Source: a virus. From it: a stretch of DNA of 64,000 bases. Of this stretch, positions 12,902 to 63,500 are shown one piece after another; position 1 is the first letter of the stretch, and the number at the start of each line of letters is the position of its first letter. The notes below the pieces were generated by a model. The model had not been told where the DNA came from and made no database searches. It saw only the letters and a program-made list of their open reading frames with translations. Where the stretch lies: the IMG/VR virus record IMGVR_UViG_3300032287_002972, positions 62,001 through 126,000 of that record. The stretch is one strand, 5' to 3'. The translations under genes and the position numbers were made by a program.

Positions 12902-12927
12902 AAAGGAGGTTAATACCTCCTTTTAAA
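12902..12927. terminator. Bidirectional terminator
   Basis: Symmetrical AAAAGGAGG...CCTCCTTTT hairpin between the convergent endolysin and the 545-residue gene; A-run on one side and T-run on the other serve both strands. It overlaps the last codons of the minus-strand gene. Confidence 0.75.
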
Positions 12928-14547
12928 TTCATTAATATCTGTTTCTGGTTTATTTTTAAGTGTTTTTACATCTGGTTTTGGTTCGTTTCCGTCTTCATAC
13001 ATATTTGGATTATCAGATAATAACTTTAAAAAACCATTTCTTGACATAAAATATGTTTTTTTTGGGTTTCTTTCGATTGCATCATATATTCCATAAAATG
13101 TCCCTTCGTTAATAATTTTATTTATAGTATACTCTTCAACAATATACGTTTTTTTAACATCATTTTCGGTATGGAAATATCTTCTAATTTCTCTACTATT
13201 ATAGATAGGTTCATAAACTATATTATCTTTTTCTAAAAATTCACCTTTTTGATAATCAAAAATCCCATATAGGTCTCTTGATCTACTTTTTATTATTTTT
13301 ATTAATGGATTTTTTATACTTAGTTTACTTACTTCGTATTTTTCCCCTAATAACCTATTCATAATTGCTGTGACACCTTCATTAAAACCTAATTGTGTTA
13401 ATTTAGTATCTAAAAGTTTAAATTGAGGTTTATCCTTACGTATTTCTGATAAAAAATCGAAATTACTAAATTTATCATATACATTATCTCTTGTTGTGAC
13501 ATTAATGTACGCATTTTTTAGTGTAGTATCTAATGATAACCAAGATTCTGGTTTAGTAAGAACATTTCCAAGGTCAATATATGATTTTTTATGTTTTCTT
13601 GACTGTCTTTTAAAATCAAAACGACTTGAACTATTTTCCACCATTTGACCTACTATAGTTTTTACTTCAACTTCCTCTTCTGAGTACTCTCTTTGAACAA
13701 TTAAATCTTTATGTTCAGTTAATTTTGGATAAATTTTACTGATTTCTTCCCACGTAAATGGTGTGTCATTATCATTTTTAACAGATGTTAAACGATAATT
13801 TTTATCAGTATCTTTAGCACTTTGTAATGCACCTAAATAATATTTATTTTTTTCTGGATCTTTTTCTATTTCCGGATTTTTTGATTCATCAATAACGAAA
13901 TAAAAAGTACGATCAGGTCTATATCGTCCCCACATATTGGTTCTATCTCCAGTCCATGTAACACACCATGAATGAGACCCACCTAAATCTTTACCTACTT
14001 TATGAGAATAATAACCAAATCTAATTGAAGTTGCCTGATTAGGTATATCGTAAACTCTAAAATCTCCATCATCAATTATTAAATATTTTTCACCAAACCA
14101 TAATTTTTTTGATGCGTTAACTATCTCATCATTTAGTGTATTTTTTTTTGTTGATATATTATCTTCATCTGGAACATCTAAATCAACATCAGAATATTGT
14201 TCAAGTAAAAAAGTTATTTGATCGTAATCATACTTTTTAATGTCTTTTAAATCATTTTGGTTAAATAATTTATGCCCATGATTACCGTCATATCTATTTA
14301 AAAAAGAAAATACTTGAGGTTGGTTAGCAGCTAAATTACCTTTTACATTATTAAAATCGGTAATGATTTTATCGATGACATTATTTCTTTCTTCGTCAGT
14401 TAAATTAAGAGTTTCATTTTTCCATTTTTCAGATAAAGTTTTAACTAATGCTTTATTTTTTATCTCTTCGGATAATAGATTTCTGATATTAATTTTTTTA
14501 ATCAATTCTTTTAATTGACTTTCATTAATTACAATTTTATTACTCAC
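12910..14547 (-). CDS. Large protein with ITESQ-type N-terminal peptide and SWC motif
   Basis: 545 residues. The start (MSNKIVINESQLKELIKKIN) belongs to the shared terminal-peptide group. The middle includes YLIIDDGDFRVYDIPN, GGSHSWCVTWTGDRTNMW and RTFYFVIDES, an order similar to the TWSSC...GTIICYLTKV region of the 510-residue protein at 22408-23940. The C-terminal half is helical and repeat-like. I do not recognise the domain; the conserved Trp-Cys after a Gly-rich stretch may be functional. A TATTTATAA box lies just upstream. The peptide makes a packaged protein plausible. Confidence 0.65.
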   Translation of the reverse strand: MSNKIVINESQLKELIKKINIRNLLSEEIKNKALVKTLSEKWKNETLNLTDEERNNVIDKIITDFNNVKGNLAANQPQVFSFLNRYDGNHGHKLFNQNDLKDIKKYDYDQITFLLEQYSDVDLDVPDEDNISTKKNTLNDEIVNASKKLWFGEKYLIIDDGDFRVYDIPNQATSIRFGYYSHKVGKDLGGSHSWCVTWTGDRTNMWGRYRPDRTFYFVIDESKNPEIEKDPEKNKYYLGALQSAKDTDKNYRLTSVKNDNDTPFTWEEISKIYPKLTEHKDLIVQREYSEEEVEVKTIVGQMVENSSSRFDFKRQSRKHKKSYIDLGNVLTKPESWLSLDTTLKNAYINVTTRDNVYDKFSNFDFLSEIRKDKPQFKLLDTKLTQLGFNEGVTAIMNRLLGEKYEVSKLSIKNPLIKIIKSRSRDLYGIFDYQKGEFLEKDNIVYEPIYNSREIRRYFHTENDVKKTYIVEEYTINKIINEGTFYGIYDAIERNPKKTYFMSRNGFLKLLSDNPNMYEDGNEPKPDVKTLKNKPETDINEFKRRY

Positions 14548-15014: not shown

Positions 15015-15425
15015 ATGGTAAATTATAAAATTGAAGTTATCGAAGGAATCGATACTGTTACCACTGAAAAATTAAAAAATATAGGTATTATCACGTTTGA
15101 ATTATTGTTAGAAAATACAAAGACAAAAAATCAAAGGAAAGAATTGTCCGAAAAAACCGAAATTGACGAAAGTTTAATTTTAAGATTTTCTAATATGGTC
15201 GATTTATCTAGAATATGTGGTATTGGTGAAAAATATTCAGAACTTTTGGAATTATCTGGTGTTGACACTATTGTTGAACTATCTCAAAGAGATCCTGATA
15301 ACTTATTTATTAAAATATCAGAAGTTAACGAGGAAAAAGATTTAACTCGAAAACTTCCGACATTATCACAAGTAGAAAAATGGATTTCAGATGCAAAGGT
15401 GTTACCAAGAATGTTAGAATATTAA
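15015..15425 (+). CDS. DUF4332 helix-hairpin-helix protein
   Basis: 136 residues matching DUF4332 over nearly its whole length: IEVIEGIDTVTTEKLKNIGI, a central LILRFSNMVDLSRICGIGEK, LLELSGVDTIVELSQRDPDN, and a C-terminal LSQVEKWISDAKVLP. The family is two tandem helix-hairpin-helix units, usually linked to DNA or nucleic acid binding. The role in the phage is unknown. Its 3' end overlaps the convergent gene by four bases. Confidence 0.85.
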   Translation: MVNYKIEVIEGIDTVTTEKLKNIGIITFELLLENTKTKNQRKELSEKTEIDESLILRFSNMVDLSRICGIGEKYSELLELSGVDTIVELSQRDPDNLFIKISEVNEEKDLTRKLPTLSQVEKWISDAKVLPRMLEY

Positions 15426-15967
15426 ATTTCTTCATCTTGTTGTACTTCCTGATGTTGTTGTTCAAGTCTTTTAACCATACCTTTTGTTAGTGAATTATAT
15501 ATTTCTTCACCAAACCTTTCCATGATATCATTTTCTTCTCTTAAATCAATAAATTCACCACCTGCTAAAAATCCAAGGACAGTTCCTAAATTGATTGTTT
15601 TCCATGATTGTTGGGTAGCCTTTGATTTTGCACTATCTCTTTCAGCGACTCTAACTCGTAAAGTTTTAAGTGTTTTACGATATAATATCAAATCAATTAC
15701 TCTTACAACATTATTATTTTGTTGTAAATTCATTTGCGCATCTGTTTTAGGTCTTTCACTTGGTACATAAGATTTAAGATGACTTTTAAATGTCAGATGA
15801 CGAACTTCTCCATTTTTTAAAACGTACGCAACACTTACTATTTGATTTCTATCTATTGCGTTTCTCAATTTATCTAATGACCTATACATGTCATATGTGA
15901 ATGGTGATTCTTTTAAGTTGTTTTTTATTAACTTTTTTAATTGTGATTCTGTAATTATAATTTTCAT
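15422..15967 (-). CDS. Protein with ITESQ-type N-terminal peptide
   Basis: 181 residues beginning MKIIITESQLKKLIKNNLKE, the clearest copy of the shared peptide. The body has a strand-rich section (IVSVAYVLKNGEVRHLTF), basic stretches (LRVRVAERDSAKSK), a glycine-rich hydrophobic segment (LGTVLGFLAGGEFIDL) and a Gln-rich tail. No family recognised. Basic character and the peptide would suit a DNA-associated head protein. Its start overlaps the end of the first of five helical-repeat paralogues by four bases. Confidence 0.65.
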   Translation of the reverse strand: MKIIITESQLKKLIKNNLKESPFTYDMYRSLDKLRNAIDRNQIVSVAYVLKNGEVRHLTFKSHLKSYVPSERPKTDAQMNLQQNNNVVRVIDLILYRKTLKTLRVRVAERDSAKSKATQQSWKTINLGTVLGFLAGGEFIDLREENDIMERFGEEIYNSLTKGMVKRLEQQHQEVQQDEEI

Positions 15968-16902
15968 TTTATTATTTGTTTTATTCTATTTATTTCATTT
16001 AACGTTTTTTGGTAGTTGTCTGGTATTTTTTTTACACCGAAATCATTAAATATTATTACTCTATTTATTAATTCATAATCAATACCCTGTTGTAATAATG
16101 TTTTCTTTAATGATTCTCTATTCTGTGAAAATTTAAATAGAAATACAATATCTTGATATTCTAATTTTTCACCTTTTGATTTAATAATTTTTATTGCTAT
16201 ATTATTTGTTTCTTTTGAAGAAGCGAGTAATAGATATATACCCCAATTATTTAATTCAATACCTTGTGTTTCAATAATTTTTGTTGCAATTTCATCTTTA
16301 ATATAATCATCTTGTGAAATATTAAGTAAATTTTTAATATCCTCAGTATCTAATTTTTTACCTTTTACTTCGATAATTTTTTTTGCAATGTTATACTTAG
16401 TTTTTGTAGAATTAAGTATTATTTCTATGTCATATTTATCTAATTCTTCACGTTTTTTTTCTATATATTTTATTGTAATTTCATCTGAATAAGGAATTAA
16501 TTTATATGTATCATAATCAGTTAATCCATCACCTTTTGCGTTAATAATTTTAGATACAATATCATCTTTATTATCTGAATATTCAAGTAAAAACTCTATA
16601 TCATATTCACCCAATTCTTCATCTATTATATATATGACTTTTGATATATAATAATCTTTATTTTTTGAAAATTGGTACAGATATTCTAAATCATCACTAA
16701 GTAAACCTTCAGTACCATTTGTTTCTATAAATTTTATTTTTTCATCGTCACTTAACATTTTAAATTCCCATCTTTCATATCCTGCAACACCTCTCATTCT
16801 TTTATAAGATTTCTTTAATGATGGAGATAAACGATCATATTGTTTTTCCGGTATTCGTGATCCTGTATTTACATATCTATTTAATACTTCAGAATGTTTC
16901 AT
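15964..16902 (-). CDS. Helical-repeat protein, KHSEVL family member 1
   Basis: 312 residues. Architecture shared by five consecutive genes: N-terminal MKHSEVLNRYVNTG module ending in a conserved Trp-Glu region, then units of about 33-38 residues of the form DIxxLLxxSxNKxxIAxKIIExKGEKL, then a C-terminal helix (YQKTLNEINRIKQIIK). The repeats are predicted helical hairpins forming a solenoid. The C-terminal helix resembles the N-terminal peptide of the ART-like proteins. It is joined to its neighbours by ATGA overlaps. Confidence 0.75.
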   Translation of the reverse strand: MKHSEVLNRYVNTGSRIPEKQYDRLSPSLKKSYKRMRGVAGYERWEFKMLSDDEKIKFIETNGTEGLLSDDLEYLYQFSKNKDYYISKVIYIIDEELGEYDIEFLLEYSDNKDDIVSKIINAKGDGLTDYDTYKLIPYSDEITIKYIEKKREELDKYDIEIILNSTKTKYNIAKKIIEVKGKKLDTEDIKNLLNISQDDYIKDEIATKIIETQGIELNNWGIYLLLASSKETNNIAIKIIKSKGEKLEYQDIVFLFKFSQNRESLKKTLLQQGIDYELINRVIIFNDFGVKKIPDNYQKTLNEINRIKQIIK

Positions 16903-17786
16903 CTCATTATTTCTTTTATTCTCCTTATTTCATTTAACATTTCTTGATAATTATCTGGTATTAATGGTGTAAATTGGGTATTTATTTCATTTGAAATATC
17001 AGATATTACTTTATTTATTAATTTATAATCAACACCATTTTGTAATAATAATTTTTTTATTAATTCTTTTTTTTCTGGGTAAAAAGTAAACTGCATAGAA
17101 TTAAATAATGCAAATATATCATCACCATTTAATTCTTTACCTTTTGTATAAATAATTTTTTCGGACATTTCATAACGTTCATTAGATGATAAATATATAA
17201 TTAAATTTTCGATATCTAGACTATTTAATTGTATACCTTTTGTCTCAATAATTTTTCTTGCAATATCAGCTTTATTAACTGAAAACAACATCATAAGTTT
17301 TAATTTTTCACTATCTAATTTTTCACCAAATGTTTCAATAATTTTTATCGCAATATTATCTATATTAAAATATTTTTTAGTCATTAAACTTCTTACCTCA
17401 GAATCATCTAATTTTTCACCTTTTACTTCAATAATTTTTGTTGCGATATCATCTTTATTCTCTGAATAACCAAGTAAATTATATATGTTACCAAATACTA
17501 ATTTTTCACCAAATGTTTCAATAATTTTTGTTGCAATAAGATCTATATCATTTGAATATTTAAATAAATCTTGAATATCGTAATGACTTAATTTTACGCC
17601 TTTTATTTCAATATAGTTAATTCTTTGATTATCACTTATAAATTCATATTCCCAATCTTTAAAACCAGCAACACTTCTTATTCTAATATAAGACTTTTTT
17701 AATACTGGTGTTAAACGATCATATTGTTCTTTTGATAGGTGTTTTCCATTATTTACATACCTACTTAATACTTCTGAATGTTTCAT
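16899..17786 (-). CDS. Helical-repeat protein, KHSEVL family member 2
   Basis: 295 residues. N-terminal module MKHSEVLSRYVNNGKHL...QYDRLTPVLKKSY, about six solenoid units, one with an inserted or altered linker (LMTKKYFNIDNIAIK), then LLLQNGVDYKLINKVI and the C-terminal helix NEIRRIKEIMR. Several units repeat KIIETFGEKL almost exactly, indicating recent unit duplication or gene conversion. It overlaps both flanking paralogues by four bases. Confidence 0.75.
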   Translation of the reverse strand: MKHSEVLSRYVNNGKHLSKEQYDRLTPVLKKSYIRIRSVAGFKDWEYEFISDNQRINYIEIKGVKLSHYDIQDLFKYSNDIDLIATKIIETFGEKLVFGNIYNLLGYSENKDDIATKIIEVKGEKLDDSEVRSLMTKKYFNIDNIAIKIIETFGEKLDSEKLKLMMLFSVNKADIARKIIETKGIQLNSLDIENLIIYLSSNERYEMSEKIIYTKGKELNGDDIFALFNSMQFTFYPEKKELIKKLLLQNGVDYKLINKVISDISNEINTQFTPLIPDNYQEMLNEIRRIKEIMR

Positions 17787-18739
17787 ATCATTATTTCTTT
17801 AATCCTTCTTATCTCATTTAACATTGATTGGTAATCATCTGGTATTAATGGAATATTTAAATGAAAATTTTTGTTATACCCATTTATAACATCATTTATT
17901 AATATATAATCAACATTATTTTGTAATAATGTTTTCTTTATTAATTCTTTATTTTCTGAACGTTTAAGTAAAATAAAGATTTCCTTTACATCTAATTTTT
18001 GACCTTTTGTTTCTATAATTTTTATTGCAATCTTATCTTTATCCTTTGATTCATTAATTAGGGTTCTTACATCCCTTATATCTAATTTATCACCTTTTGT
18101 TTCAATAATTTTTATTGTAATGTTATCATTTACGTTATCTGAAAAATTAAGTAAACTTTCTATGTCACTAGAGATTAATTTTTCACCTTTTGTTTCAATA
18201 ATTTTTATTGAAATATGGTCATTTACGTTTTCAAAATCTTTTAATATGTATTCTATACTAATGTAATCTAATTTATCACCTTTTGTTTCAATAATTTTTG
18301 TTGCAATATCATCTTTATTAACTGAATATTTTAATAGTAATACTATAATGTAATTATTTAAAGAATCACTTTTTGTTTGAATAATTTTTGTTATAATACC
18401 ATCTTTATTCGTTGAATGATTAATTAAACTATTAATAATTAAATTATTTAAATTATCACCCATCCCGTCAATAATTCTCATTATAATATTATTTTTATTA
18501 TCTGAATATTTAATTAAATTATCAATAAAATAACTGTTTAAATAGATACCTTCTCTCTCAATATAATTAATTCTTTGATTATCATTTATATATTTTAATT
18601 CCCAATGAGAATAATCACCCACAACAGATCTGATTCTAATATAAGATTTCTTTAATGATGGAGATAAACTATCATATTGTTTTTCTGTTATTTCTACGCC
18701 AGTATTTACATATCTACTTAATACTTCTGAATGTTTCAT
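17783..18739 (-). CDS. Helical-repeat protein, KHSEVL family member 3
   Basis: 318 residues, the longest of the five paralogues. It has the same N module (with GDYSHWELKYI in place of GYxxWEF) and the most regular repeat run: IATKIIETKGDKLDYISIEY, ISIKIIETKGEKLISSDI, ITIKIIETKGDKLDIRDV, IAIKIIETKGQKLDVKEI. It ends NEIRRIKEIMI. Variation is concentrated in the DIxxLL half of each unit, as expected of a binding surface on a solenoid. Confidence 0.75.
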   Translation of the reverse strand: MKHSEVLSRYVNTGVEITEKQYDSLSPSLKKSYIRIRSVVGDYSHWELKYINDNQRINYIEREGIYLNSYFIDNLIKYSDNKNNIIMRIIDGMGDNLNNLIINSLINHSTNKDGIITKIIQTKSDSLNNYIIVLLLKYSVNKDDIATKIIETKGDKLDYISIEYILKDFENVNDHISIKIIETKGEKLISSDIESLLNFSDNVNDNITIKIIETKGDKLDIRDVRTLINESKDKDKIAIKIIETKGQKLDVKEIFILLKRSENKELIKKTLLQNNVDYILINDVINGYNKNFHLNIPLIPDDYQSMLNEIRRIKEIMI

Positions 18740-19590
18740 ATCATTATTTGTTTTATTCTCCTTATTTCGTTTAACATTGATTGGTAATTATCTGGTATTA
18801 ATGAGATATCTAAATTATTACGTGTTATAACTTTGTTTATTAACATATAATCAACACCATTTTGTAATAATGTTTTCTTTATTAATTCTTTATCTTTTGA
18901 ATATAAAAGTAAATAATATATGTCATCACTATCCAAATTTTCACCTACTTTTTGAATAATTTTTACGGCGTCATTATCTTTATTTTTTGAATTTAAAAGT
19001 AAAATAGATATCATATCATAGTTTAATTTTATACCTTCTGTTTCAATAATTTTTGTTGATATGTCTTTATTATCTGAAAATTCAAATATTGTATTTATGT
19101 TACTTATTTCCAAGTATTTACCTTTTGCATGAATAATTTTTATTGCTATCTCATCTTTATTATCTGAATTTTTAAGTAGATATTTTATTTCACTATTTCT
19201 TAAATTTTCACCTAATGTTTCGATAATTTTTATTATAACATTATCTTTATTTTTTGAATCTTTAAATTGTGGTAATATTATTTCAAGTATGATATAATCA
19301 TCCAAATTTATACCGAATGTTTCAATAATTTTTGTTGCAATAATAACTTTATTTGGTGAATAGTCAAATATATCTATTATTTGATTATTTGTTAATTCCC
19401 AATTTTTTATTTCAATAAATTTAAGTTTTTCATCTTCACTTAACAGTTTAAATTCCCATTTTTTGTAACCTGAAATACCTCTCATTCTCATATAAGATTT
19501 TTTCAATGATGGTGATAAACGGTCATATTGGTTTTCTGGGATTAGTGAACCTGTATTTACATATCTATTTAATACTTCTGAATGTTTCAT
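18736..19590 (-). CDS. Helical-repeat protein, KHSEVL family member 4
   Basis: 284 residues. N module MKHSEVLNRYVNTGSLIPENQYDRLS is nearly identical to member 1, suggesting exchange between copies, followed by about six units and LLLQNGVDYMLINKVI before the terminal helix NEIRRIKQIMI. No catalytic residues recur among paralogues, so a binding role is more likely than an enzymatic one. Confidence 0.75.
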   Translation of the reverse strand: MKHSEVLNRYVNTGSLIPENQYDRLSPSLKKSYMRMRGISGYKKWEFKLLSEDEKLKFIEIKNWELTNNQIIDIFDYSPNKVIIATKIIETFGINLDDYIILEIILPQFKDSKNKDNVIIKIIETLGENLRNSEIKYLLKNSDNKDEIAIKIIHAKGKYLEISNINTIFEFSDNKDISTKIIETEGIKLNYDMISILLLNSKNKDNDAVKIIQKVGENLDSDDIYYLLLYSKDKELIKKTLLQNGVDYMLINKVITRNNLDISLIPDNYQSMLNEIRRIKQIMI

Positions 19591-20375
19591 ATCATTATTT
19601 CTTTAATCCTTCTTATTTCTTGTAACATTGATTGGTAATTATCAGGTATTAATTCAATATGACTTACACCATCTTTTTCAAAATTATACTGGTTTATTAC
19701 TTTATTTATTAATTCATAATCAATACCTTTTTGTAATAATAATTTCTTTATTAATTCTTTATTTTCCGGATAAATAAATAAGTATTTTATGTTATGTTTA
19801 TTAAAATATTGTTTATCAATTAATTGAATAATTTTTATAGCCATATCATCTGCATTTTGTGAATGTCTAATAAAAAAAATTATTTTTTCTTCGTCCATAT
19901 CTACCATTTTTTTATTATTTTCAATAATTTTAGATATAAGATTTTCTTTATTAATTGAATTAGGAACATAATTAATTAGAGTACTAATCATATCATCATC
20001 TATCTCATCCAACGTTTCAATAATCCTTATTGAGATTTCATATTTATTATTTGAATTATTAAGTAATAAACTAGCTTCATTATAAGTTAAAGTCTTACCT
20101 TTTTTTTCAAATATTTTAGATATCATATCATCTTTATTATCTGAATATTGAAGTGTGTATTTTATTTCATAGAATTCTAAATCCTCACCTTTATTTTCGA
20201 TAAAATTAATTCTTTGATTATCATTTATTACTTGAAATTCCCAACTTTCATATCCTGCAACACCTCTCGTTCTAAGATAGGATTTTTTTAACACAGGTGT
20301 TAACCTGTCATATTGTTCTTTTGGTAATCGTTCTCCGGTATTTACATATCTACTTAATACTTCTGAATGTTTCAT
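19587..20375 (-). CDS. Helical-repeat protein, KHSEVL family member 5
   Basis: 262 residues, the first gene of the five-copy operon and the most divergent in its repeats (IFEKKGKTLTYNEASLLLNN, ISIRIIETLDEIDDDMISTL). The N module and the C-terminal LQEIRRIKEIMI helix are conserved. It begins after a short gap from a gene encoding a secreted protein. Divergence at the operon head with homogenised downstream copies fits stepwise tandem duplication. Confidence 0.75.
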   Translation of the reverse strand: MKHSEVLSRYVNTGERLPKEQYDRLTPVLKKSYLRTRGVAGYESWEFQVINDNQRINFIENKGEDLEFYEIKYTLQYSDNKDDMISKIFEKKGKTLTYNEASLLLNNSNNKYEISIRIIETLDEIDDDMISTLINYVPNSINKENLISKIIENNKKMVDMDEEKIIFFIRHSQNADDMAIKIIQLIDKQYFNKHNIKYLFIYPENKELIKKLLLQKGIDYELINKVINQYNFEKDGVSHIELIPDNYQSMLQEIRRIKEIMI

Positions 20376-20828: not shown

Positions 20829-21404
20829 ATGAAAAGAACGGTTATTATTAATGAACAACAATTTACAAAACTAATTAAAAAAATTTTAAACGAACAAAAT
20901 AATATGGATAATAACACATTTCCGAAAAATCACAAAGAATTGATTAACATGATGCCTGATTCATTAAAAATTCTTTTTTATACTCAATGGCAAGCAAAAC
21001 AAAACCCGAAGTGGCACATGGAAGGTAATACGTTAAAACATATTATTATTGTTTTAAAAAGAGCGTTTGAACGTTATCCAAACAATCCTGACATCATTCT
21101 TGCGGCGTTATTTCATGACTTGGGAAAGTTAGACACTTACGCAATAAATCCAAAAACAGGACAACCAACGGCATACGGTCACGAAGTTAAATCAGGTGAA
21201 TATTTGGAAAAATATAAAGATTGGGTTAATTCTTTTGATGGAGTAAATTTTGATAAAATCAAATATTTGGTATTAAACCATATGGTTATTAAACCATCAA
21301 CATGGGATAATATGAGGCAACAAAAAAAGGACCCTATTGAACAGAATCCTTCTTTTGAAGATTTAAAAAATTTTACCAACCATTTAGATGGTGGTGGTTA
21401 TTAA
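20829..21404 (+). CDS. HD-domain phosphohydrolase with terminal peptide
   Basis: 191 residues. The N terminus MKRTVIINEQQFTKLIKKIL followed by NEQ is the shared peptide on the plus strand. The body shows the HD metal ligands: His in NTLKHIIIV (71), HD in ALFHDLGKLDTY (96-97), and later His in YGHEVKSGEY and VLNHMVIK. HD enzymes hydrolyse phosphate esters such as nucleotides or cyclic dinucleotides. The substrate is not evident. If packaged, it could attack host nucleotide or signalling pools on entry. Confidence 0.78.
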   Translation: MKRTVIINEQQFTKLIKKILNEQNNMDNNTFPKNHKELINMMPDSLKILFYTQWQAKQNPKWHMEGNTLKHIIIVLKRAFERYPNNPDIILAALFHDLGKLDTYAINPKTGQPTAYGHEVKSGEYLEKYKDWVNSFDGVNFDKIKYLVLNHMVIKPSTWDNMRQQKKDPIEQNPSFEDLKNFTNHLDGGGY

Positions 21405-21964: not shown

Positions 21965-22411
21965 TTATGATATATTTTCAAAATATAGTGGTTTTCTTGA
22001 AACCACAATTGTTGCCCCTATTTCATTCACATCATCAAGTAGTATTTCACTACCATCACCATATACTTTATATAAATAATCACCATACTTATATTTTGAT
22101 GACTGAAAAGATGATGACATTAATGGTTCATCTGATACAAAGGTAAAACCGAATCCCTCACTCTCAAACACCTCGTTCATCCCATCAATGTTTTCATCTT
22201 CAAGATTCTCATCATAATCAGATATAATGTCCATATAGGCATTTCTAATAACATCAGAATAATCTGATGAATCTAAAATATCCCCTTTATAATAACCATT
22301 TGACATGTCATTCCTTGATGAGTGATAACCTAAAAAGTTTTTATTATCTACATTCTCAATTATAACACCCATTATTTGTTTAATTCTATTAATATTTTCT
22401 TGTAGTTTCAT
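21965..22411 (-). CDS. Possible ADP-ribosyltransferase-like protein with RIKQIM peptide
   Basis: 148 residues beginning MKLQENINRIKQIMGVIIEN, the same helix type as the two ART-like proteins at 25972 and 26826. The body has FLGYHSSRNDMSNGYYKGDI and a late strand EIGATIVVSRKPLYFENI. The YHSS start and Gly-Tyr-Tyr segment resemble the NAD-binding N-terminal half of ART folds, but the match is weaker than in its neighbours. Start overlaps the end of the 510-residue gene by four bases. Confidence 0.5.
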   Translation of the reverse strand: MKLQENINRIKQIMGVIIENVDNKNFLGYHSSRNDMSNGYYKGDILDSSDYSDVIRNAYMDIISDYDENLEDENIDGMNEVFESEGFGFTFVSDEPLMSSSFQSSKYKYGDYLYKVYGDGSEILLDDVNEIGATIVVSRKPLYFENIS

Positions 22412-23940
22412 ATTTTTTTATTTAAATTTACAAATAATTCAATGTATCTTTTTTTATGAACGGGACTTAAAAATTTAAATTCATATCCTTGAAGGTCATA
22501 TTTTTGTATTTGAGATTTTATTGAATCTTTTGGAAAATCATTCTTAACGAATTTTTCTAAAACAGATATTTTTCTTTCAAAATACGTTTCTTTTTGAGTA
22601 GATGAAGCGTGTTTAAGTTCTTCTTGGGTCATTGTGTGTTTATTTTTTATGAGTGTATCGATTGCAAATGTCTTTTGCTCGGGAGTTAACATTTCAAATT
22701 CCCAATCAAGTAAAGAATGTCCTTTATTTATTTTAATATTAAAATGTTCTTCTCTTTGTTCAGGAGTTGCCTCTTTTAGTTGGTCTGTCCATATTAATAT
22801 ACCATTTTTTATTTTATAATCAATTATTTCTTTTTTTACTTCTTTTGGTGAGTTATTAAATATGTATTCGTCTTCATACATATTATAGACAGTATACTTA
22901 TTATTTTTTATAAGTAATGAAATATATCTTTTCTTTTGACTTTGTGATGCTAATACATAATATAATAAATCCTGAAGAATATTTCCATTTATTAACATTT
23001 TTTCAATAAGTTGTCTTCTATCCATTATAGGAAGTGATATAAATTCTGGATTTGTTAGTTCTTCACCTTTTTCTATTTTTTTTAGTGCCCTGTTTCTAAT
23101 AGATTTTTTACCCTCAACCGTATCTCTATAACTATCATCATATAAACATCCTAACCTTCTATATGTTCCCGACAATTTTTGTGTTTTTTCCATGTAATCG
23201 TCTATAGTATCTGTAAATTTTTCAGAATCTGGTATATTGCCATATGTTTTTTGGTCTGGATATAAAATAACATCTTTTTCATTTTCTACATTTAGAAATG
23301 GTTTTATTAAAACTCTCCCTAATGGGTTTTCTATATTTGTATCATTTACTTTTGTTAAATAACATATTATAGTTCCCTCTTTCATGTCTCTTTCCACGTA
23401 ATGTTGGTTCCCCCCCATAATAAGGTTCATACAACTACTCCAAGTAGGTAATCTACCAGTCGACATTCCCGCAATATCGTACTTGGCACTGGAAAATATT
23501 ATAACTAAATCATCCTCTTTATCTATTATACCTCTACTCTTTATTGATGCATATCTATCTATTAATTCTTTTGCTTCAGGTTCTTTTTTTGACACAATAT
23601 TCAAGGCTCTATTTAACGCTATTTCCTTATTATTTTTCATATTTATCGCAAGATTATTTCGATAATCTTTTATGATGAATTGGTATGGTTCTAATATGTC
23701 TTTAATCTCATTTTCTGTAGAATCATTCGTATATGGAAACGATATTCTCCATCCTCGTTTATCTATTTGACGTGCGTTAGGTAATGATTTTAAATTCGTG
23801 AATACTTGTTTAATCCTTTCCTCAGCTTCTGGACTTCTTTCTATTTCAAGATATTTTTTTGCTACGGAGTATGCGACCGCTTCGTCAACAGTACTTTTAA
23901 TAATCTTTTTATATTGTGATTCTGTAATTATTATTTTCAT
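22408..23940 (-). CDS. Large two-part protein with ITESQ-type peptide, SSC motif and helical repeats
   Basis: 510 residues. Terminal peptide MKIIITESQYKKIIKSTVDE. Residues about 60-280 form a mixed domain with LVIIFSSAKYDIAGMSTGRL, TWSSCMNLIMGG and GTIICYLTKVND, comparable to the SWC region of the protein at 12910-14547. The C-terminal 200 residues are helical units containing LTPEQ or ATPEQREEHF and FxxxTLIKN-type motifs, similar in style to the KHSEVL repeats. It may be a toxin-like head with a solenoid tail. No known activity can be assigned. Confidence 0.65.
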   Translation of the reverse strand: MKIIITESQYKKIIKSTVDEAVAYSVAKKYLEIERSPEAEERIKQVFTNLKSLPNARQIDKRGWRISFPYTNDSTENEIKDILEPYQFIIKDYRNNLAINMKNNKEIALNRALNIVSKKEPEAKELIDRYASIKSRGIIDKEDDLVIIFSSAKYDIAGMSTGRLPTWSSCMNLIMGGNQHYVERDMKEGTIICYLTKVNDTNIENPLGRVLIKPFLNVENEKDVILYPDQKTYGNIPDSEKFTDTIDDYMEKTQKLSGTYRRLGCLYDDSYRDTVEGKKSIRNRALKKIEKGEELTNPEFISLPIMDRRQLIEKMLINGNILQDLLYYVLASQSQKKRYISLLIKNNKYTVYNMYEDEYIFNNSPKEVKKEIIDYKIKNGILIWTDQLKEATPEQREEHFNIKINKGHSLLDWEFEMLTPEQKTFAIDTLIKNKHTMTQEELKHASSTQKETYFERKISVLEKFVKNDFPKDSIKSQIQKYDLQGYEFKFLSPVHKKRYIELFVNLNKKI

Positions 23941-23950
23941 AATTTTTTAT

Positions 23951-24814
23951 TTATAGTTGTTCCAATTGTTTAATCTGTTTTGGCCAAAGAAAGATATGTG
24001 ATTGTCTCCTTAATAACCCTAAAAAATTATCTATATCTCTTCTATATTTTTTACTTAAATATTCTATTTTATCTAATGTTAGATCTTCATTAGGTTTAAA
24101 TAATTTATTACGAAGATTTTCGGGTACTTCTTCAGATTTTAACTCCTTACCATATTTTTTTAAAAATTCTCTTCTTGTATATCTTATCCAAGGACCATCA
24201 GTATTTCGTCTAAAAAATCGACCTTCATGAAACCATACCGTTTTTATTTCATTCGGATCCAAATCACCAATAAATAATGCTTGATGTTCAGGGTCATTAA
24301 ATATACTATTACCTAATTCGGGTCTGTCTGATTTTGATACTCTATTTTTACCATATTTACCTTCAGGGTCATTCTCACCATATTCTTTTCTTTTCCTTAA
24401 TATTTCTTGTTGTCTTTCATCATCATTTTTAAATGATTTTGTCATTTGACCCGGAACAAAATAACTATCTTGACCCGCCCATACAGGTGATTCTAAATTG
24501 GTTACTTTAGTGTCAAATTCAATAATGATTCCAGATGATGCAAATCTTCGTGACACTATATTAAATTCTGTGGACACAAATAATCCTTTTGGGTTATTAC
24601 CACTTTCGTATGAATATATTCTTCGAGCCCTAACACCACCAGATAAACCATGTGTTAAAGAATATAATGCATCTGCTGTACTTGATGAATTAAATCCATG
24701 GTATACTCTTATTTTTTCAGAATCTTTTATTGGTTCAAAATCTTTTAAGTATGACCCAACAACTCTAGTCTCTAAAAGTCTTTTTAGTTGTGATTCTGTA
24801 ATTATTACTTTCAT
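23951..24814 (-). CDS. ADP-ribosyltransferase-like protein with ITESQ-type peptide
   Basis: 287 residues. After MKVIITESQLKRLLE comes IRVYHGFNSSSTADALYSL (His about 39), a turn with GLFVSTEFNIVSRRFA (76-92), and a beta-rich core ending HQALFIGDLDPNEIKTVWFH. This order (Arg/Tyr-His-Gly strand, GLFVST strand, late acidic strand) is that of HYE/PARP-like ADP-ribosyltransferases. T4 packages an ADP-ribosyltransferase (Alt) using an N-terminal targeting peptide, so packaging here is a reasonable model. A CTCGGGyGCCGGGATATTTATAA leader precedes it. Confidence 0.65.
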   Translation of the reverse strand: MKVIITESQLKRLLETRVVGSYLKDFEPIKDSEKIRVYHGFNSSSTADALYSLTHGLSGGVRARRIYSYESGNNPKGLFVSTEFNIVSRRFASSGIIIEFDTKVTNLESPVWAGQDSYFVPGQMTKSFKNDDERQQEILRKRKEYGENDPEGKYGKNRVSKSDRPELGNSIFNDPEHQALFIGDLDPNEIKTVWFHEGRFFRRNTDGPWIRYTRREFLKKYGKELKSEEVPENLRNKLFKPNEDLTLDKIEYLSKKYRRDIDNFLGLLRRQSHIFLWPKQIKQLEQL

Positions 24815-25384: not shown

Positions 25385-25927
25385 TTAATTAAATTGTTCT
25401 AAATACTTAACGAGTCTTTCCCCATATAATATATCATATGGTTCTTGTTCTTCCAATGAAAAATAATCACCGTTTTCAATAAAATTAGGTAAAGATTGAA
25501 CATCTATATAATTTACTGTATTGACTTTTTTATTTTTCATATCATAAACATAACCATTAATTCTTCTAAAAATTGTTTCATTCTTTTTAATAATTACCAA
25601 TATTGCCTCATTAATGTTTGGTGTACCACCAAAATTAGAATAACTCCAAGTATCAGGGTTATCACTAAAAAATAAAACTCCTTCAACTCTATCTTCGTTT
25701 TGGTTATAATATTCATCATCCATATACATTTGGTAACTTTCAGTATTTTTAACGGTGTCACCAAAATCAGGTAATAAACCAAATCTTTTTATCGAATCCA
25801 AATTTTTAATATTTGAACCATGATATAAAAAAGATTTATTTGGTTTTGGTACTTTAACTATTTTTTCTTCATTTAAAATATTGTTAACAACCCTTTTAAA
25901 TTGTGATTCTGTGATTATTATTTTCAT
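25385..25927 (-). CDS. ADP-ribosyltransferase-like protein with ITESQ-type peptide
   Basis: 180 residues. N-terminal MKIIITESQFKRVVNNILNE ends in an ideal LNE cleavage site. The body has SFLYHGSNIKNLDSIKRFGL, typical of the H-containing first strand and helix of HYE-class ART or KptA-like folds, then GVLFFSDNPDTWSYSNF (the Tyr strand) and EPYDILYGERLVKYL (late acidic strand). Short length suits a single catalytic domain. It shares its unusual GC-rich leader with the gene at 23951-24814. Confidence 0.68.
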   Translation of the reverse strand: MKIIITESQFKRVVNNILNEEKIVKVPKPNKSFLYHGSNIKNLDSIKRFGLLPDFGDTVKNTESYQMYMDDEYYNQNEDRVEGVLFFSDNPDTWSYSNFGGTPNINEAILVIIKKNETIFRRINGYVYDMKNKKVNTVNYIDVQSLPNFIENGDYFSLEEQEPYDILYGERLVKYLEQFN

Positions 25928-25971: not shown

Positions 25972-26823
25972 TTAACTTAATAATTTCTCCACGGTGTTCA
26001 CCAATTCAGGATTACTTCCGTCTTGTTTTGCTTCATGATATTTTTGGGAAATGAATAGTTCAATATTTGGAACAAGAAGGTCATTAAGTTTTTCTTGTGG
26101 TATCAACATTATTTCTCTCCCATCATCAAAAATAACACCATCAAAACCTGAATGTAAAATTAGGTTATTAAAAGAATCCTCCAAACCAAAAACAGAGTTA
26201 AGTTTATTTAAGTTATTAGTTTCAATAACTCTTAATTCTAATTGTTCCATAAATCTATCAAATCCTAATTTAGGTTCTTCTTTTAATGATTTTTTTAATG
26301 TGTTAACAATATAATCGGTATTTTTATCAAAAACGGAATATCTTTCTTTTAGGTTATTTATTTCATTTGTAATTTCATCATATTCGTTATTGTTACGTAC
26401 ATTAATCAACAAATCCTCTAGTTTATGGATTCTTGAACTTATTTCAGATGGTAATTCTAACATGTAAATTACTTGATTAATGCTCATATTTCCATTTAAT
26501 AAGTCTAAAGAATTTGCGTTCAAATATGTTGACTTTTGTCCGTAATCATAATTTTTAAATGAACTACTAAAATAATATCCTTTACCATATCTTCCTCTCA
26601 TTGAACCTTTTATTTTAGATGAGTCAAAATTGGAAATGACTTGGTCTCCGTTATGTGCAATTAGATTAGTTAAATTTCTTAATGTTACCTCAGTTTGTAT
26701 ATCTTTTAATTTCGGTTTTAATGATTCAGATGTGGATTCTACTGATTCTAAAGATGGGTTAGTTGTTGATTCATTTAATCCCATTATATTTTTAATCCGT
26801 GATATTTGTTCGTTTAGTTCCAT
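25972..26823 (-). CDS. ADP-ribosyltransferase-like protein with RIKNIM peptide
   Basis: 283 residues from the ATG at 26821-26823, chosen so that MELNEQISRIKNIMGLNE is N-terminal as in the next gene. The body has NLIAHNGDQVISNFDSSKIK and GRYGKGYYFSSSFKNYDYG, then a helical insert, and finally GFDGVIFDDGREIMLIPQ. The late YDGVI..GxE strand carries the Glu expected of ARTs found in phage MuF-type and toxin proteins. Probable substrate: a host protein or RNA, unknown. An earlier in-frame ATG would overlap the upstream gene. Confidence 0.7.
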   Translation of the reverse strand: MELNEQISRIKNIMGLNESTTNPSLESVESTSESLKPKLKDIQTEVTLRNLTNLIAHNGDQVISNFDSSKIKGSMRGRYGKGYYFSSSFKNYDYGQKSTYLNANSLDLLNGNMSINQVIYMLELPSEISSRIHKLEDLLINVRNNNEYDEITNEINNLKERYSVFDKNTDYIVNTLKKSLKEEPKLGFDRFMEQLELRVIETNNLNKLNSVFGLEDSFNNLILHSGFDGVIFDDGREIMLIPQEKLNDLLVPNIELFISQKYHEAKQDGSNPELVNTVEKLLS

Positions 26824-26825
26824 GA

Positions 26826-27581
26826 TTAACAATTTATATTAATATCGAGATTATTTAATCTACTTATCATTTCGTTGGTTTTCTTTTCTGTATCTTTTGA
26901 TAATATACCACCAACTTTATTTGTAATAAAAACTTCCGAGATTTTAATTACGTTTTTTAATGGTATTGGTTCAAAAACTCTAATATACTCATCTTGTAAC
27001 ATATACAAATCCAAGTCTTTTGGTGATATTGCTAATATAACACCTTCACTACTGTTCGGAAGATAATTTCTTGCGGTACTTGGAGTTTGTCCCAAATTGA
27101 TACCTTCAGTTTCCAAGATAGCACCCCTCATATCGCTGTCTATAAAACCTTGTTTTTTTATTCTTTCCCAATCTTTTAACGAAACACCTCTAAATAATAT
27201 TTTATCACCAATTGCTCGATAAATTGGAATTTTACTATCTTTGTCCCATGATCCTGTTGTTGGCAATTCACCAACCTTTTCTCCCATTTTGTATGTGTAG
27301 GAATCACTATAATTTAAATCTTTTAAAAAAATGGTCATTTGGTTTTTGACATCATCCTTATCTGATAAAAAATAACCGTCCTCAAAATACCCACGAATTC
27401 TACGTTGTTCTTGTTTAAGTTCATACCATTTATCATCATAATTTTCATTATCATAATCACTAATCACCTTTTCCAATGTCTGTTGAATACATTTTAATTT
27501 ATTATCTATATTATTTGATGAGACTTGTTCATTTAACCCCATTATATTTTTAATCCGTGATATTTGTTCGTTTAGTTCCAT
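26826..27581 (-). CDS. ADP-ribosyltransferase-like protein with RIKNIM peptide, paralogous N terminus
   Basis: 251 residues from the ATG at 27579-27581; the longer frame upstream overlaps the transglutaminase-like gene and looks non-coding. The N terminus MELNEQISRIKNIMGLNEQ is almost identical, also in DNA, to the preceding ART-like gene, while the bodies differ. Motifs: DKILFRGVSLKDWERIKKQG, LGQTPSTARNYL, GVILAISPKDLDLY and IRVFEPIPLKNVIKI. The FRG...S/T...E order fits RSE-class ARTs. Confidence 0.65.
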   Translation of the reverse strand: MELNEQISRIKNIMGLNEQVSSNNIDNKLKCIQQTLEKVISDYDNENYDDKWYELKQEQRRIRGYFEDGYFLSDKDDVKNQMTIFLKDLNYSDSYTYKMGEKVGELPTTGSWDKDSKIPIYRAIGDKILFRGVSLKDWERIKKQGFIDSDMRGAILETEGINLGQTPSTARNYLPNSSEGVILAISPKDLDLYMLQDEYIRVFEPIPLKNVIKISEVFITNKVGGILSKDTEKKTNEMISRLNNLDININC

Positions 27582-27594
27582 AATTAATATATTT

Positions 27595-28083
27595 TTAAAA
27601 ATCCCCAATATAGTCGTAATATTCATTAGGGTCTGATGATAACTTATTAATAACAACATATCTTTCATCAAATTCAACATCAGGTATTTTTTTCCAACAA
27701 TATCCACCTCCTGTTTCATAAAGATAAGGTGGTATATCAACATTATATACACCATCTTCTGTTCTTGCCACGACATATACATGTTGTTCTCCAGATACTT
27801 GAGATACTGTTGAACATTCTATTCCATTATTTGATAAGACATCAGCCATTGCATCTGCAATGTCTTGACAAATACCACCTTCACCTAACATATCACAATA
27901 ACCATTTTCGTCTTGTTCCCAATCATCATAAACTTTTTGTGAGGAAAGGGCAAGTTTTGATTTTAAACTAAACAAAATATCTGTGTCTGTTTGTTCATTT
28001 AATGATTTTTTATAACCATGTTTTTTGTGTAATTCGAGAATTTCTCTCTTTTCAGATTCTGTTAAGACAAAGTTCTTATACAT
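27595..28083 (-). CDS. Transglutaminase-like cysteine protease/transferase with ESEK peptide
   Basis: 162 residues. N-terminal peptide MYKNFVLTESEKREILELHK, then a SLNEQ site near residue 30 that could be a prohead-protease cleavage point. The catalytic triad order of the transglutaminase-like superfamily is visible: Cys 72 in GGICQDIADAMADVL, His 101 in GEQHVYVVA, Asp 116 in VYNVDIPP. The fold includes proteases, amidases and crosslinking enzymes. It neighbours two ART-like genes on one strand, supporting a shared effector role. Confidence 0.75.
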   Translation of the reverse strand: MYKNFVLTESEKREILELHKKHGYKKSLNEQTDTDILFSLKSKLALSSQKVYDDWEQDENGYCDMLGEGGICQDIADAMADVLSNNGIECSTVSQVSGEQHVYVVARTEDGVYNVDIPPYLYETGGGYCWKKIPDVEFDERYVVINKLSSDPNEYYDYIGDF

Positions 28084-28127: not shown

Positions 28128-28946
28128 TTATTTATTAAGTCCTTTTGTATTAATATTTATATTTGCAATTTTTGAAATATCTAAATAAACTTTATTATCT
28201 TTAAGAATTGAAAATGTGGCGAATAATGCGGGTATGTCTGAAAATTTTACATTATTTATTCTTAAGACAGAATAAAATGACCATAAATCTGATAGTACAC
28301 CTTTTTCTCCTTCCGGTTTTTGAAAAACCAAAAAATTATTTACTTTTCCTATTCTATAATCACCAAATGTCATTTTTTTTGTCTTTATTGCGTTAATAAA
28401 TTTACTCATAACCATTTGAGGATTATCCACAGGACCAATACCTAAAGTACTTCTTAAATTTTGAATTCTTGCTAACGTTTCTCGTTCGTTAGCGACATAC
28501 GAATCTTGTCCATTTTGAGGTGATGTAAGTGGTGTTGTATTTGTTGTTATTGAATCTTCACCAAGTTTAGTCATTATATTATCTATTAAGTGACCCATTT
28601 CATGTAGAATAGTGTTATACGCCTTAACATTTCCTGTAAATTTCCATGAATTTAAATTTATTAAAAATGGTGAATTAAAATTTACCCAACCATTACTATT
28701 CTGATTAGGACTATCATTTTTATTCCATAATTTAAGTTTAAATCTGGGTATTAAACTTAAAATCTTTTTTATATTATCTTTATTTTTAAATTTCATTATA
28801 GTATCTCTATTACTGTAATGTTTGATGAAATGATTTTTAACGTTTTGTAAATCACCATCATAATTCGTATTATTATTCTGTTCATTAATAATACGACTGA
28901 TTATTTTTTTTAATTGTGATTCGGTTATTTCTATAATCTTACTCAT
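28128..28946 (-). CDS. HExxH metallopeptidase-like protein with ITESQ peptide
   Basis: 272 residues. The N terminus SKIIEITESQLKKIISRIINEQ is a full copy of the shared peptide ending in INEQ. HEMGH at residues 115-119 (YNTILHEMGHLIDNIM) is a zinc metallopeptidase motif, with Glu/Arg-rich helix NERETLARIQNLR downstream as a possible third-ligand region. The C terminus is beta/alpha mixed. As the first gene of the minus-strand block it starts next to the G-rich junction. Likely a packaged protease. Confidence 0.7.
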   Translation of the reverse strand: MSKIIEITESQLKKIISRIINEQNNNTNYDGDLQNVKNHFIKHYSNRDTIMKFKNKDNIKKILSLIPRFKLKLWNKNDSPNQNSNGWVNFNSPFLINLNSWKFTGNVKAYNTILHEMGHLIDNIMTKLGEDSITTNTTPLTSPQNGQDSYVANERETLARIQNLRSTLGIGPVDNPQMVMSKFINAIKTKKMTFGDYRIGKVNNFLVFQKPEGEKGVLSDLWSFYSVLRINNVKFSDIPALFATFSILKDNKVYLDISKIANININTKGLNK

Positions 28947-56658: not shown

Positions 56659-56735
56659 AGTCAGGTGGCTGAATTGGAGACAGAGGCACTCCGTTAGATG
56701 ACGGGTGGATACAGGTTCGAATCCTGTCCTGACTA
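56659..56735 (+). tRNA. tRNA gene, normal length, unusual anticodon loop
   Basis: 77 bases. Acceptor AGTCAGG/CCTGACT, D arm GCTGAATTGGAGACAGAGGC, variable region TGGAT, T arm ACAGG TTCGAAT CCTGT. The anticodon arm reads CTCCGTTAGATGACGGG. The best stem is TCCG/CGGG around an eight-base loop TTAGATGA, so a standard seven-base loop is not formed. Isotype is therefore uncertain; an expanded loop or degenerate tRNA are both possible. No encoded CCA. Confidence 0.68.
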
Positions 56736-56759
56736 CAAAAACAAACAAAATAAATTAAT

Positions 56760-60499: not shown

Positions 60500-61240
60500 T
60501 TATTTATTTAAAGTTAGTCTAATCTTTTTTTTACCTTTAGTTAATTCACTAATTTTTCTTCTTGTTTCTTCAGAATGTTTTTTACCTTTAGCAGATTCAC
60601 TTAATTTTCTCTTATGTTCTTCTGAAAATATTTTACCTTTAGCAGCTTCACTCATTCTTCTTTTTGTTTCATCAGACATATTCTGTTTTGCTTCACTCAT
60701 TCTTCTTTTCGTTTCTTCGGATATGTTCTGTTTAATTTCACACATCTTTTTTCTTGTTTCTTCAGAATGTTTTTTACCTATAAGGGACAAACTTATATTT
60801 CTCTTATGTTCTTCTGAATGTAATTTACCTTTACGAGATTCACTCATGTTTCTCTTATGTTCTTCAGAAAATGGTTTACGAGAGTTAGACTCCTTTTTAC
60901 TTTCAGGTATGAGTCCAAATATTCTTCCAAACACTTTCCTATCCTCAATAGATTTTCTATTGTTAACAGATTTTATTATCTTATTAATTTCAAGAACATT
61001 TATATTTTCAGTTTCACTTAGAATGGTTTCAGGTATCCCCATTATAAAACATGAAGTATATAGATACATGTCTCTACATTCAACATGTAAACTATTATAG
61101 GATTTTATTCCAATGTTATGATATTCTTTATATTCTACATCGAAAATATCTTTAATAATTCGTTTAGAAATACTTAATGAAATCACATATTCATCCATTG
61201 TGGTATTAGATGAAAAATTCATACAATTTAATCCTTTCAT
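60500..61240 (-). CDS. NUMOD3-repeat protein without a visible nuclease domain
   Basis: 246 residues. Residues 1 to about 115 are of unknown type. From about 118 on come six or more NUMOD3-type units ([40 protein letters not shown]). NUMOD3 is a DNA-binding module normally attached to GIY-YIG or HNH homing endonucleases, but neither nuclease motif is visible here. Its start overlaps the stop of the first QV-repeat gene by ATGA. It may be a degraded homing protein or a DNA-binding protein. Confidence 0.75.
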
Positions 61241-61443
61241 ATTAATGTGTTTTGTTTTATTTTGAAATGAAATTCTATTTGACTATATAGTTGGACACGT
61301 AATCTATCACGTGATTCAATAAAAAAATGAACACCTATTTGATTACGTACTTCATTATATAAATGAACACCTATTTGATTACGTACTTCATTATATAATA
61401 TATTAATTATTTGGTTACGTATTTGGTCACTAATTATCTTCAT
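61237..61443 (-). CDS. QV-repeat small protein, array member 1
   Basis: 68 residues: tetrapeptide-periodic chain with hydrophobic I/V/L every fourth position ([20 protein letters not shown]). An internal 12-residue duplication ([13 protein letters not shown]) corresponds to a 36-base tandem DNA repeat at 61331-61402. Overlaps NUMOD3 gene and member 2 by ATGA. Confidence 0.65.
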
Positions 61444-61622
61444 ATGTTTTGTTTTACTTTAGTATATAGAGGTACGCGTACATCCATATGTATTTTAAGT
61501 TGTACATCATCATACACTTGGTCACGTACTCTACCAATCACTTGTCTTACAGCTTTTCTAAATAAATTTTCTAATATAGTTTCTTCTAAACTATGGTTTA
61601 TTTTTTCACTTATTGGTCTCAT
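61440..61622 (-). CDS. QV-repeat small protein, array member 2
   Basis: 60 residues. The N-terminal third is less regular (SEKINHSLEETILENLFRKA), followed by VRQVIGRVRDQVYDDVQLKI. C-terminal KVKQN, like the KQNRLI ends of other members. Function unknown. Confidence 0.6.
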   Translation of the reverse strand: MRPISEKINHSLEETILENLFRKAVRQVIGRVRDQVYDDVQLKIHMDVRVPLYTKVKQNI

Positions 61623-61639
61623 GTTAATATATTGTTTGG

Positions 61640-63494: not shown

Positions 63495-63500
63495 ATTAAT

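What the first reader, a model, noticed from the sequence alone, without database searches (positions are those of the whole stretch)
15964..20375. Five tandem helical-repeat paralogues joined by ATGA
Seen: five consecutive genes with the same N module (MKHSEVLxRYVNTG), variable numbers of about 36-residue units (KIIETKGEKLDxxDIxxLL) and the same C-terminal helix. Some units are near identical and others are diverged, and N modules of non-adjacent copies are most similar. Inference: expansion and gene conversion of a solenoid binding family, with diversification on one face; perhaps decoys, inhibitors or host-factor traps.
Basis: seen in the sequence. Interest (0 to 1): 0.68.

Follow-up and report, generated by a model that had tools for sequence, protein, structure and literature searches.

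The report
Tagged repeat proteins for phage capsid
A T4-like bacterial virus carries a row of near-duplicate, rod-shaped helical-repeat proteins, each ending in a short cleavable tag that very probably loads it into the virus head so that it enters the next host cell with the DNA, where its fast-changing surface could bind host proteins.

Summary
Five tandem minus-strand genes overlap by ATGA and share an N module, a variable number of two-helix units and a C-terminal helix. The unit is 30-31 residues, not about 36. AlphaFold gives a confident alpha-solenoid (pLDDT 90.5). The window lies in a 168-kb T4-type phage record (gp23 capsid, S77 prohead protease) with two more copies beside the capsid genes; relatives carry 1 to 6 at that site.

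The main result is the C-terminal helix. All 23 aligned copies end in L-x-E|IxRIKxIM: an invariant gp21-type prohead-protease site ([IL]xE, x variable) followed by a peptide that unrelated neighbours carry at their N-terminus. A second N-terminal tag (ITESQxxxLxE) marks more neighbours. Tags sit on 17 of 32 ORFs in this region and 0 of 52 in the opposite gene block.

Best reading: capsid-targeted, protease-trimmed internal head proteins analogous to T4 IPs and Alt, but tagged at the C-terminus. Two relatives fuse the same solenoid to a different N-terminal domain. Solenoid surfaces evolve fast (dN/dS about 1.1-1.2, core 0.44) while N and C modules are conserved and partly homogenised, suggesting an injected, diversifying binder repertoire. 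Packaging and host target are inferred, not shown.

The parts
19587..20375 (-). Paralogue 1 of the run (262 aa), first in transcription order; N module 20190-20375, C tag about 19590-19628 (MLQE|IRRIKEIMI)
   Evidence: ORF and alignment; solenoid orthologues L002:8369-9157 and L017:901-1689 (51-54%)
18736..19590 (-). Paralogue 2 (284 aa); C tag about 18739-18777 (MLNE|IRRIKQIMI)
   Evidence: orthologue L017:1686-2363 (solenoid 92%, N module 97%)
17783..18739 (-). Paralogue 3 (318 aa), most regular: six units starting at residues 80, 110, 140, 171, 202, 232; C tag about 17786-17824 (MLNE|IRRIKEIMI)
   Evidence: AlphaFold2 pLDDT 90.5, pTM 0.83, all-helical solenoid
16899..17786 (-). Paralogue 4 (295 aa); C tag about 16902-16940 (MLNE|IRRIKEIMR)
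   Evidence: solenoid orthologue L002:5756-6634 (68%) but N module closest to L001:10001 (87%)
15964..16902 (-). Paralogue 5 (312 aa); C tag about 15967-16005 (TLNE|INRIKQIIK)
15422..15967 (-). Unrelated 181-aa protein joined by ATGA to the run; N-terminal tag MKIIITESQLKKLIKNNLKE|S
12910..14547 (-). 545-aa protein with N-terminal tag IVINESQLKELI
21965..22411 (-). 148-aa protein with the RIKxIM tag at its N-terminus (MKLQE|NINRIKQIMG)
22408..23940 (-). 510-aa protein, N-terminal tag MKIIITESQYKKII; carries helical repeats that loosely resemble the N module
23951..24814 (-). 287-aa protein, N-terminal tag MKVIITESQLKRLLE; ADP-ribosyltransferase-like by eye only
   Evidence: no Pfam match, no significant PHROG match
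25385..25927 (-). 180-aa protein, N-terminal tag MKIIITESQFKRVVNNILNE|E; faint PARP / RNA 2'-phosphotransferase similarity
   Evidence: PARP E 0.019, below cut-off; phrog_5470 E 0.06
25972..26832 (-). 286-aa ORF with N-terminal tag MELNE|QISRIKNIMGLNE|S; likely start is the internal ATG
26826..27782 (-). Protein with the tag MELNE|QISRIKNIMGLNE; the ORF is over-extended at its 5' end
28128..28946 (-). 272-aa protein, N-terminal tag IEITESQLKKIISRIINE|Q; HEMGH metalloprotease-like motif
   Evidence: sub-threshold Peptidase_M91
20829..21404 (+). 191-aa HD-domain protein, N-terminal tag VIINEQQFTKLIKKILNE|Q
   Evidence: Pfam HD E 3e-5, over cut-off

Best explanation
The five genes, with two more copies beside the capsid genes, encode internal head (ejection) proteins of a T4-type phage. 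Proposed steps: (1) late in infection each protein is made with its solenoid body and a C-terminal helix IxRIKxIM; (2) that helix, like the N-terminal tags of the neighbouring genes, docks the protein onto the scaffolding core of the prohead; (3) the phage's S77 (gp21-type) protease cuts after the invariant L-x-E and frees the body inside the head; (4) the body is ejected with the DNA into the next cell; (5) there the variable face of the solenoid binds a host protein, most likely a defence factor, in the way T4 IPI* binds GmrSD. Shown here: the family, the solenoid model, the shared tags, the invariant site, the linkage of tags to gp23/S77 phages, the variable copy number, and a fast surface with conserved ends. 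Inferred: packaging, cleavage, ejection, and a host-protein target.
For: Site and tag: L, E, I, R, I, K of LxEIxRIK are invariant in all 23 aligned copies (x = N, Q or H in the 16 shown), and both fused relatives P0001/P0002 have the same ending. Same tag on unrelated proteins: nearly all hits of the RIKxIM regex in the genome lie at a terminus, 9 within two residues of a C-terminus and 3 at N-termini; in IMG/VR the ISRIKxIMG motif is N-terminal in 24 of 35 hits, typically as NLNEEISRIKSIMGVITE. Second tag MK[IV]IITESQ: in 45 non-redundant IMG/VR proteins of varied type, 36 have [IL]xE at residues 10-19, against about 10-20% further along; the peptide is encoded by 48 different DNA sequences in 80 cases, so selection acts on the peptide. 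Linkage: of 24 contigs of 78 kb or more chosen for that tag (one is 69.9 kb), 15 carry Gp23 and exactly the same 15 carry Peptidase_S77, against 3 of 22 control contigs with Gp23, Fisher p 0.0009. Local: 17 of 32 - strand ORFs in window 1-28946 are tagged, 0 of 52 + strand ORFs after 31000, p 2e-9. Own genome has S77 (1e-21) and a relative's MCP is Gp23 (6e-74). Position: in all five genomes a cluster lies beside gp23/scaffold/protease/gp20. T4 precedent read from the record: Alt MELITE|, gp67 MEGLIE|, gp22 MLKEQLIAE|; Alt is cut at ITE-6 and at the C-terminus at LTE-619, PMC5694885. IPs are diverse and share only the CTS, and IPI* inhibits GmrSD, PMC3012670. Scaffold link: in Flavobacterium phage immuto the scaffold C-terminus is best matched, of 42,056 windows, by the N-termini of two small proteins (scores 45 and 38; next 26). 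Evolution: solenoid dN/dS 0.45-1.47, exposed positions 1.13-1.23, core 0.44, N module 0.12-0.48.
Against: No virion proteomics is at hand for this lineage, so packaging and cleavage are unproven. Known T4 CTSs are N-terminal; here the tag is C-terminal. In the window's own genome the scaffold C-terminus does not clearly match the RIKxIM tag, so scaffold mimicry rests on immuto. Nine of 24 tagged contigs lack both gp23 and S77 (fragments, but two exceed 210 kb). dN/dS near 1 may be relaxed constraint rather than arms-race selection, and exposed positions of helix A (1.13) barely differ from helix B (1.23). The N-terminal domain fused in L021 could not be identified (pLDDT mostly below 40).
Confidence: 0.6

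Rival explanations
1. Head-assembly role: the solenoids are tagged into the prohead core as core fillers, shape or length determinants or assembly chaperones, and have no task in the new host cell.
For: Clusters sit beside scaffold and capsid genes; C and N modules are the conserved parts.
Against: Copy number of 1 to 7 with variable repeat number and fast surface evolution fits a structural part poorly; relatives fuse the solenoid to another N-terminal domain; one cluster sits among unrelated tagged accessory genes.
Confidence: 0.17
2. Not packaged: the tags are docking or localisation peptides for another phage factor, or a retained coding leader, and the solenoids act in the infected cell as ordinary anti-host binders.
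For: No virion data; 9 of 24 tagged contigs lack detectable gp23/S77.
Against: [IL]xE at a fixed place after the ITESQ tag (36/45) and invariant before the C-terminal tag; linkage to gp23/S77 contigs; the same peptide occurs at both N- and C-termini; 48 different DNA encodings.
Confidence: 0.18
3. Nucleic-acid-binding repeat proteins of PPR or TALE style, with variable helix positions reading bases.
For: Two-helix units of 30-31 residues; among listed PDB hits mitochondrial PPR-type chains have the best TM-scores (7pnx_4 0.34, 8any_A4 0.31).
Against: The proteins are neutral to acidic (net 0 to -6); variable positions carry many residue types rather than a small code; no Pfam PPR or TALE match.
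Confidence: 0.05

Closest known systems
T4 internal proteins IPI, IPII, IPIII (capsid targeting sequence, gp21 processing)
   Same: Diverse, multi-copy, fast-evolving bodies with only a short targeting peptide in common; [IL]xE protease site next to the peptide; genes in a gp23/gp21 phage (PMC3012670)
   Different: Tag is C-terminal here; body is an alpha-solenoid of 160-330 aa, not the compact 76-residue fold of IPI*; tandem ATGA-linked array; no detectable sequence similarity to any phage record
T4 Alt (packaged ADP-ribosyltransferase)
   Same: Packaged effector with short N-terminal peptide ending ITE; also trimmed at its C-terminus at LTE-619 (PMC5694885); P0001/P0002 place another domain plus solenoid between two tags
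   Different: Alt's C-terminal propeptide is 63 residues, here about 9; the ART nature of the fused domain in L021 is a guess from motifs, not confirmed
SPN3US / phiKZ ejection proteins with propeptides
   Same: Paralogues sharing an N-terminal propeptide, cut after x-x-E by the prohead protease, thought to be ejected into the host (PMC5694885)
   Different: Long N-terminal propeptides and A-x-E or S-x-E motifs there; short C-terminal tag and L-x-E here
ARM, PPR, TPR and ankyrin-type solenoids
   Same: Helical repeat stack with variable exposed positions
   Different: No Pfam repeat family match; Foldseek best E 1.7e-3 and TM-scores at most about 0.35 among listed PDB hits

Membership tests
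T4-type internal proteins (IP/CTS) | Encoded in a phage with gp23 capsid and gp21-type prohead protease | tested here: met
   Peptidase_S77 E 1e-21 in own genome; Gp23 E 6e-74 in relative L001, homologous MCP in own genome
T4-type internal proteins (IP/CTS) | Targeting peptide joined to the body by an [IL]xE site | tested here: met
   L-x-E invariant in 23 of 23 copies beside the shared tag
T4-type internal proteins (IP/CTS) | Targeting peptide at the N-terminus | tested here: not met
   The paralogues carry it at the C-terminus; their N-terminus has no [IL]xE-ended tag
T4-type internal proteins (IP/CTS) | Detectable sequence homology to known IPs | tested here: not met
   tblastn against 50,697 phage records including T4: no match
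T4-type internal proteins (IP/CTS) | Presence in the mature virion and ejection with DNA | not testable with these tools
   No proteomics for this uncultured phage
ADP-ribosyltransferases (fused domain of L021) | Profile or fold match to an ART family | tested here: inconclusive
   No Pfam, PHROG or PDB-sequence support; AlphaFold region pLDDT mostly below 40 with 2 sequences
ARM/HEAT/TPR/PPR/ankyrin repeat families | Match to a curated repeat model | tested here: not met
   No Pfam repeat family at E 0.1 for the five proteins
ARM/HEAT/TPR/PPR/ankyrin repeat families | Close structural match to a solved member | tested here: not met
   No PDB match at E below 0.001

The most novel reading that the evidence does not exclude
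A large gp23 phage lineage uses short interchangeable peptides at either terminus, at least some copied from the scaffold's own C-terminus, as a general capsid-loading code for many accessory proteins. One loaded class is a tandem, recombining array of solenoids that works as a repertoire of injected binders against host defences.
Probability: 0.35. Interest if true: 0.8.

Novelty: new variant of a known kind. Interest (0 to 1): 0.6.

Why it matters
If right, a simple sequence rule (a terminal tag plus [IL]xE) would predict which of the many unknown proteins of large Bacteroidetes-type T4-like phages travel inside the capsid. It would extend the T4 CTS idea to a C-terminal tag, and offer an expandable solenoid scaffold that phages use to diversify injected host-interacting proteins. 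The rule is directly testable by virion proteomics on an isolate such as Flavobacterium phage immuto.

Tried and rejected
Pfam, PHROG and PDB sequence searches for a known family: nothing above cut-off. Foldseek against PDB and BFVD: only generic solenoids; giant-virus and ASFV multigene-family solenoids appear in BFVD, but at query TM-scores at most about 0.46, treated as architecture only. The family in bacterial genomes: 78 pattern matches, none a relative. The tag by tblastn in cultured phages: query too short, no match. ADP-ribosyltransferase assignment of the L021 N-terminal domain: not supported by any search or model, kept as a guess. Two control patterns for the gp23 linkage gave too few or no contigs before a usable one. 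Claim that the N module is a copy of the helical repeat in 22408-23940: profile search did not support it. First dN/dS run had a module-boundary error for two pairs and was redone.
Full report
What is there. The window is part of a 168-kb virus record (C1:62001-126000). At 15964-20375 on the minus strand lie five paralogous genes whose ends overlap by four bases, in a chain that continues into 15422-15967. Each has an N module of about 62 residues, a variable number of two-helix units, and a C-terminal module of about 55 residues. AlphaFold2 on an alignment of 23 family members gives an all-helical solenoid, mean pLDDT 90.5 and pTM 0.83. No Pfam, PHROG or PDB family claims it, and fold searches return only generic solenoids without significance.

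Where it occurs. Two more copies lie at C1:36219-37684 of the same record, between a 350-residue gene and a deaminase-like gene, next to gp23. The same slot holds three copies in L001, six in L002, at least six in L017 (the contig begins there) and one in L018. Beside it are gp23, an acidic scaffold-like protein, an S77 protease and a gp20-like portal. The contig of L002 carries, at another place (L021), two longer proteins, P0001 and P0002, that join an N-terminal ITESQ-tagged domain to the same units and the same C-terminal module. No relative was found in 50,697 phage records at tblastn E 1e-5 or in the bacterial and archaeal genome collection.

The C-terminal helix is a tag. All 23 aligned copies keep L-x-E followed by I-x-R-I-K. 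The residue between L and E varies (N, Q, H). The T4 prohead protease cuts after such sites, for example ITE-6 and LTE-619 in Alt (PMC5694885), and the T4 record shows MELITE in Alt, MEGLIE in gp67 and MLKEQLIAE in gp22. The same RIKxIM peptide begins three unrelated neighbours (21965, 25972 and the downstream part of 26826) and ends two unrelated proteins elsewhere in the genome, C1:18465-18953 and C1:20166-20795. In IMG/VR the motif I-S/T-R/S-I-K-x-I-M-G is N-terminal in 24 of 35 hits, usually as LNE...ISRIKxIMG[LV]ITE; most of the rest are short chance frames.

A second tag. Among 45 non-redundant tagged proteins, 36 have [IL]xE at residues 10-19, with the glutamate mostly at residue 15 or 16; later windows show about 10-20%. 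The peptide is spelled by 48 different DNA sequences in 80 cases, so it is not a conserved DNA element. Of 24 large tagged contigs (70 kb or more), 15 have Gp23 and the same 15 have the S77 protease; with an unrelated start peptide 3 of 22 contigs have Gp23, Fisher p 0.0009. The ISRIKxIMG contigs give 7 of 12. In this window, 17 of 32 minus-strand ORFs before 28946 are tagged and 0 of 52 plus-strand ORFs after 31000 (p 2e-9). These regular expressions were written after seeing the sequences, so the p-value describes the clustering, not the discovery.

Link to the scaffold. In Flavobacterium phage immuto (capsid protein 40% identical), scanning the scaffold C-terminus EVSEQVSRWQKLAGIIK over 42,056 windows gives two outliers, 45 and 38 against a next best of 26. 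Both are the N-termini of small proteins, ILSEQFRRMQKLAGIIT and ILSEQFKRMQFLAGIIT. So in that phage a terminal tag copies the scaffold terminus. In the window's genome the equivalent comparison is not significant, so scaffold mimicry is only suggested here.

Evolution. By solenoid sequence, genes pair across genomes (92%, 85%, 68%, 51-54%, 98%), but N modules do not always follow: the 16899 gene pairs with L002:5756 by solenoid (68%) and with L001:10001 by N module (87%); most N modules of L002 are closest to one another. For the pair L011:16219 and L002:5058 the N-module dS is 0.56 and the solenoid dS 0.06. This supports separate recombination or conversion of the N module. dN/dS is 0.12-0.48 for N modules and 0.45-1.47 for solenoids. 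Pooled over units, exposed positions have 1.23 (helix B) and 1.13 (helix A) against 0.44 for the rest. Amino-acid diversity at positions left free by the search pattern is higher on helix B than on helix A (p 0.001). Diversification of the surface is supported; positive selection is not proven.

Mechanism. I read the family as capsid cargo: docked to the prohead core by the C-terminal tag, cut by the S77 protease at LxE, carried in the head and ejected. T4 internal proteins are described as a highly diverse set of defence proteins sharing only a CTS, with IPI* binding the GmrSD nuclease (PMC3012670). The solenoid array would be an extendable version of the same idea. The proteins are neutral to acidic, which argues against nucleic-acid binding. 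Packaging, cleavage, ejection and target are inferences.

Membership. They work like T4 internal proteins, but I do not file them as IPs: the tag is at the other end and there is no sequence homology. They are best called a new variant of prohead-protease-processed ejection proteins.

Limits. The records of this family are metagenomic and mostly fragments. The identity of the domain fused in P0001/P0002 is unknown; ADP-ribosyltransferase is only an impression from its motifs. There is no experimental evidence for any step in this phage.

Noticed in passing
window 61237-63891, - strand: About ten tiny tandem ORFs rich in NQV/NQI-type short repeats (for example MKSVSNQVCKQINEKVHNNARV), looking like a degenerate repeat family.
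   Followed up: no
window 56659-56736, + strand: ARAGORN reports a tRNA-like gene with a four-base anticodon (agat), the only tRNA in the window.
   Followed up: no
L018:14634-16511, L018:17845-20466 and L017:10163-12067: The prohead protease and portal genes of relatives are interrupted by long inserts that look like inteins or homing endonucleases.
   Followed up: no
window 12910-14547, 22408-23940 and L011:15152-16204: Three tagged proteins seem to share a Cys/Trp-rich stretch ending in FYFVID or FYYIVD and helical YIxxGxxLT repeats loosely like the N module; profile search did not confirm the link.
   Followed up: partly
L023 (LR756508.1:150000-199000): A 484-kb uncultured phage has about twenty small genes near its capsid genes starting MKLTERKLRNLVKEVLKE-like, a possible third version of the loading tag.
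   Followed up: partly
L011:18413-19252: A tape-measure-like protein right beside gp23 begins with an ITESQ-like tag (HLTESDLRKLISKIIEE).
   Followed up: partly
L027, L059 and L088/L101 tagged ORFs: Some ITESQ-tagged proteins look like sigma-factor-like or DHH-type enzymes by eye, which would be odd cargo for a capsid.
   Followed up: no
window 60500-61240, - strand: 246-aa ORF with repeated [20 protein letters not shown]-type segments, like NUMOD3 repeats of homing endonucleases.
   Followed up: no
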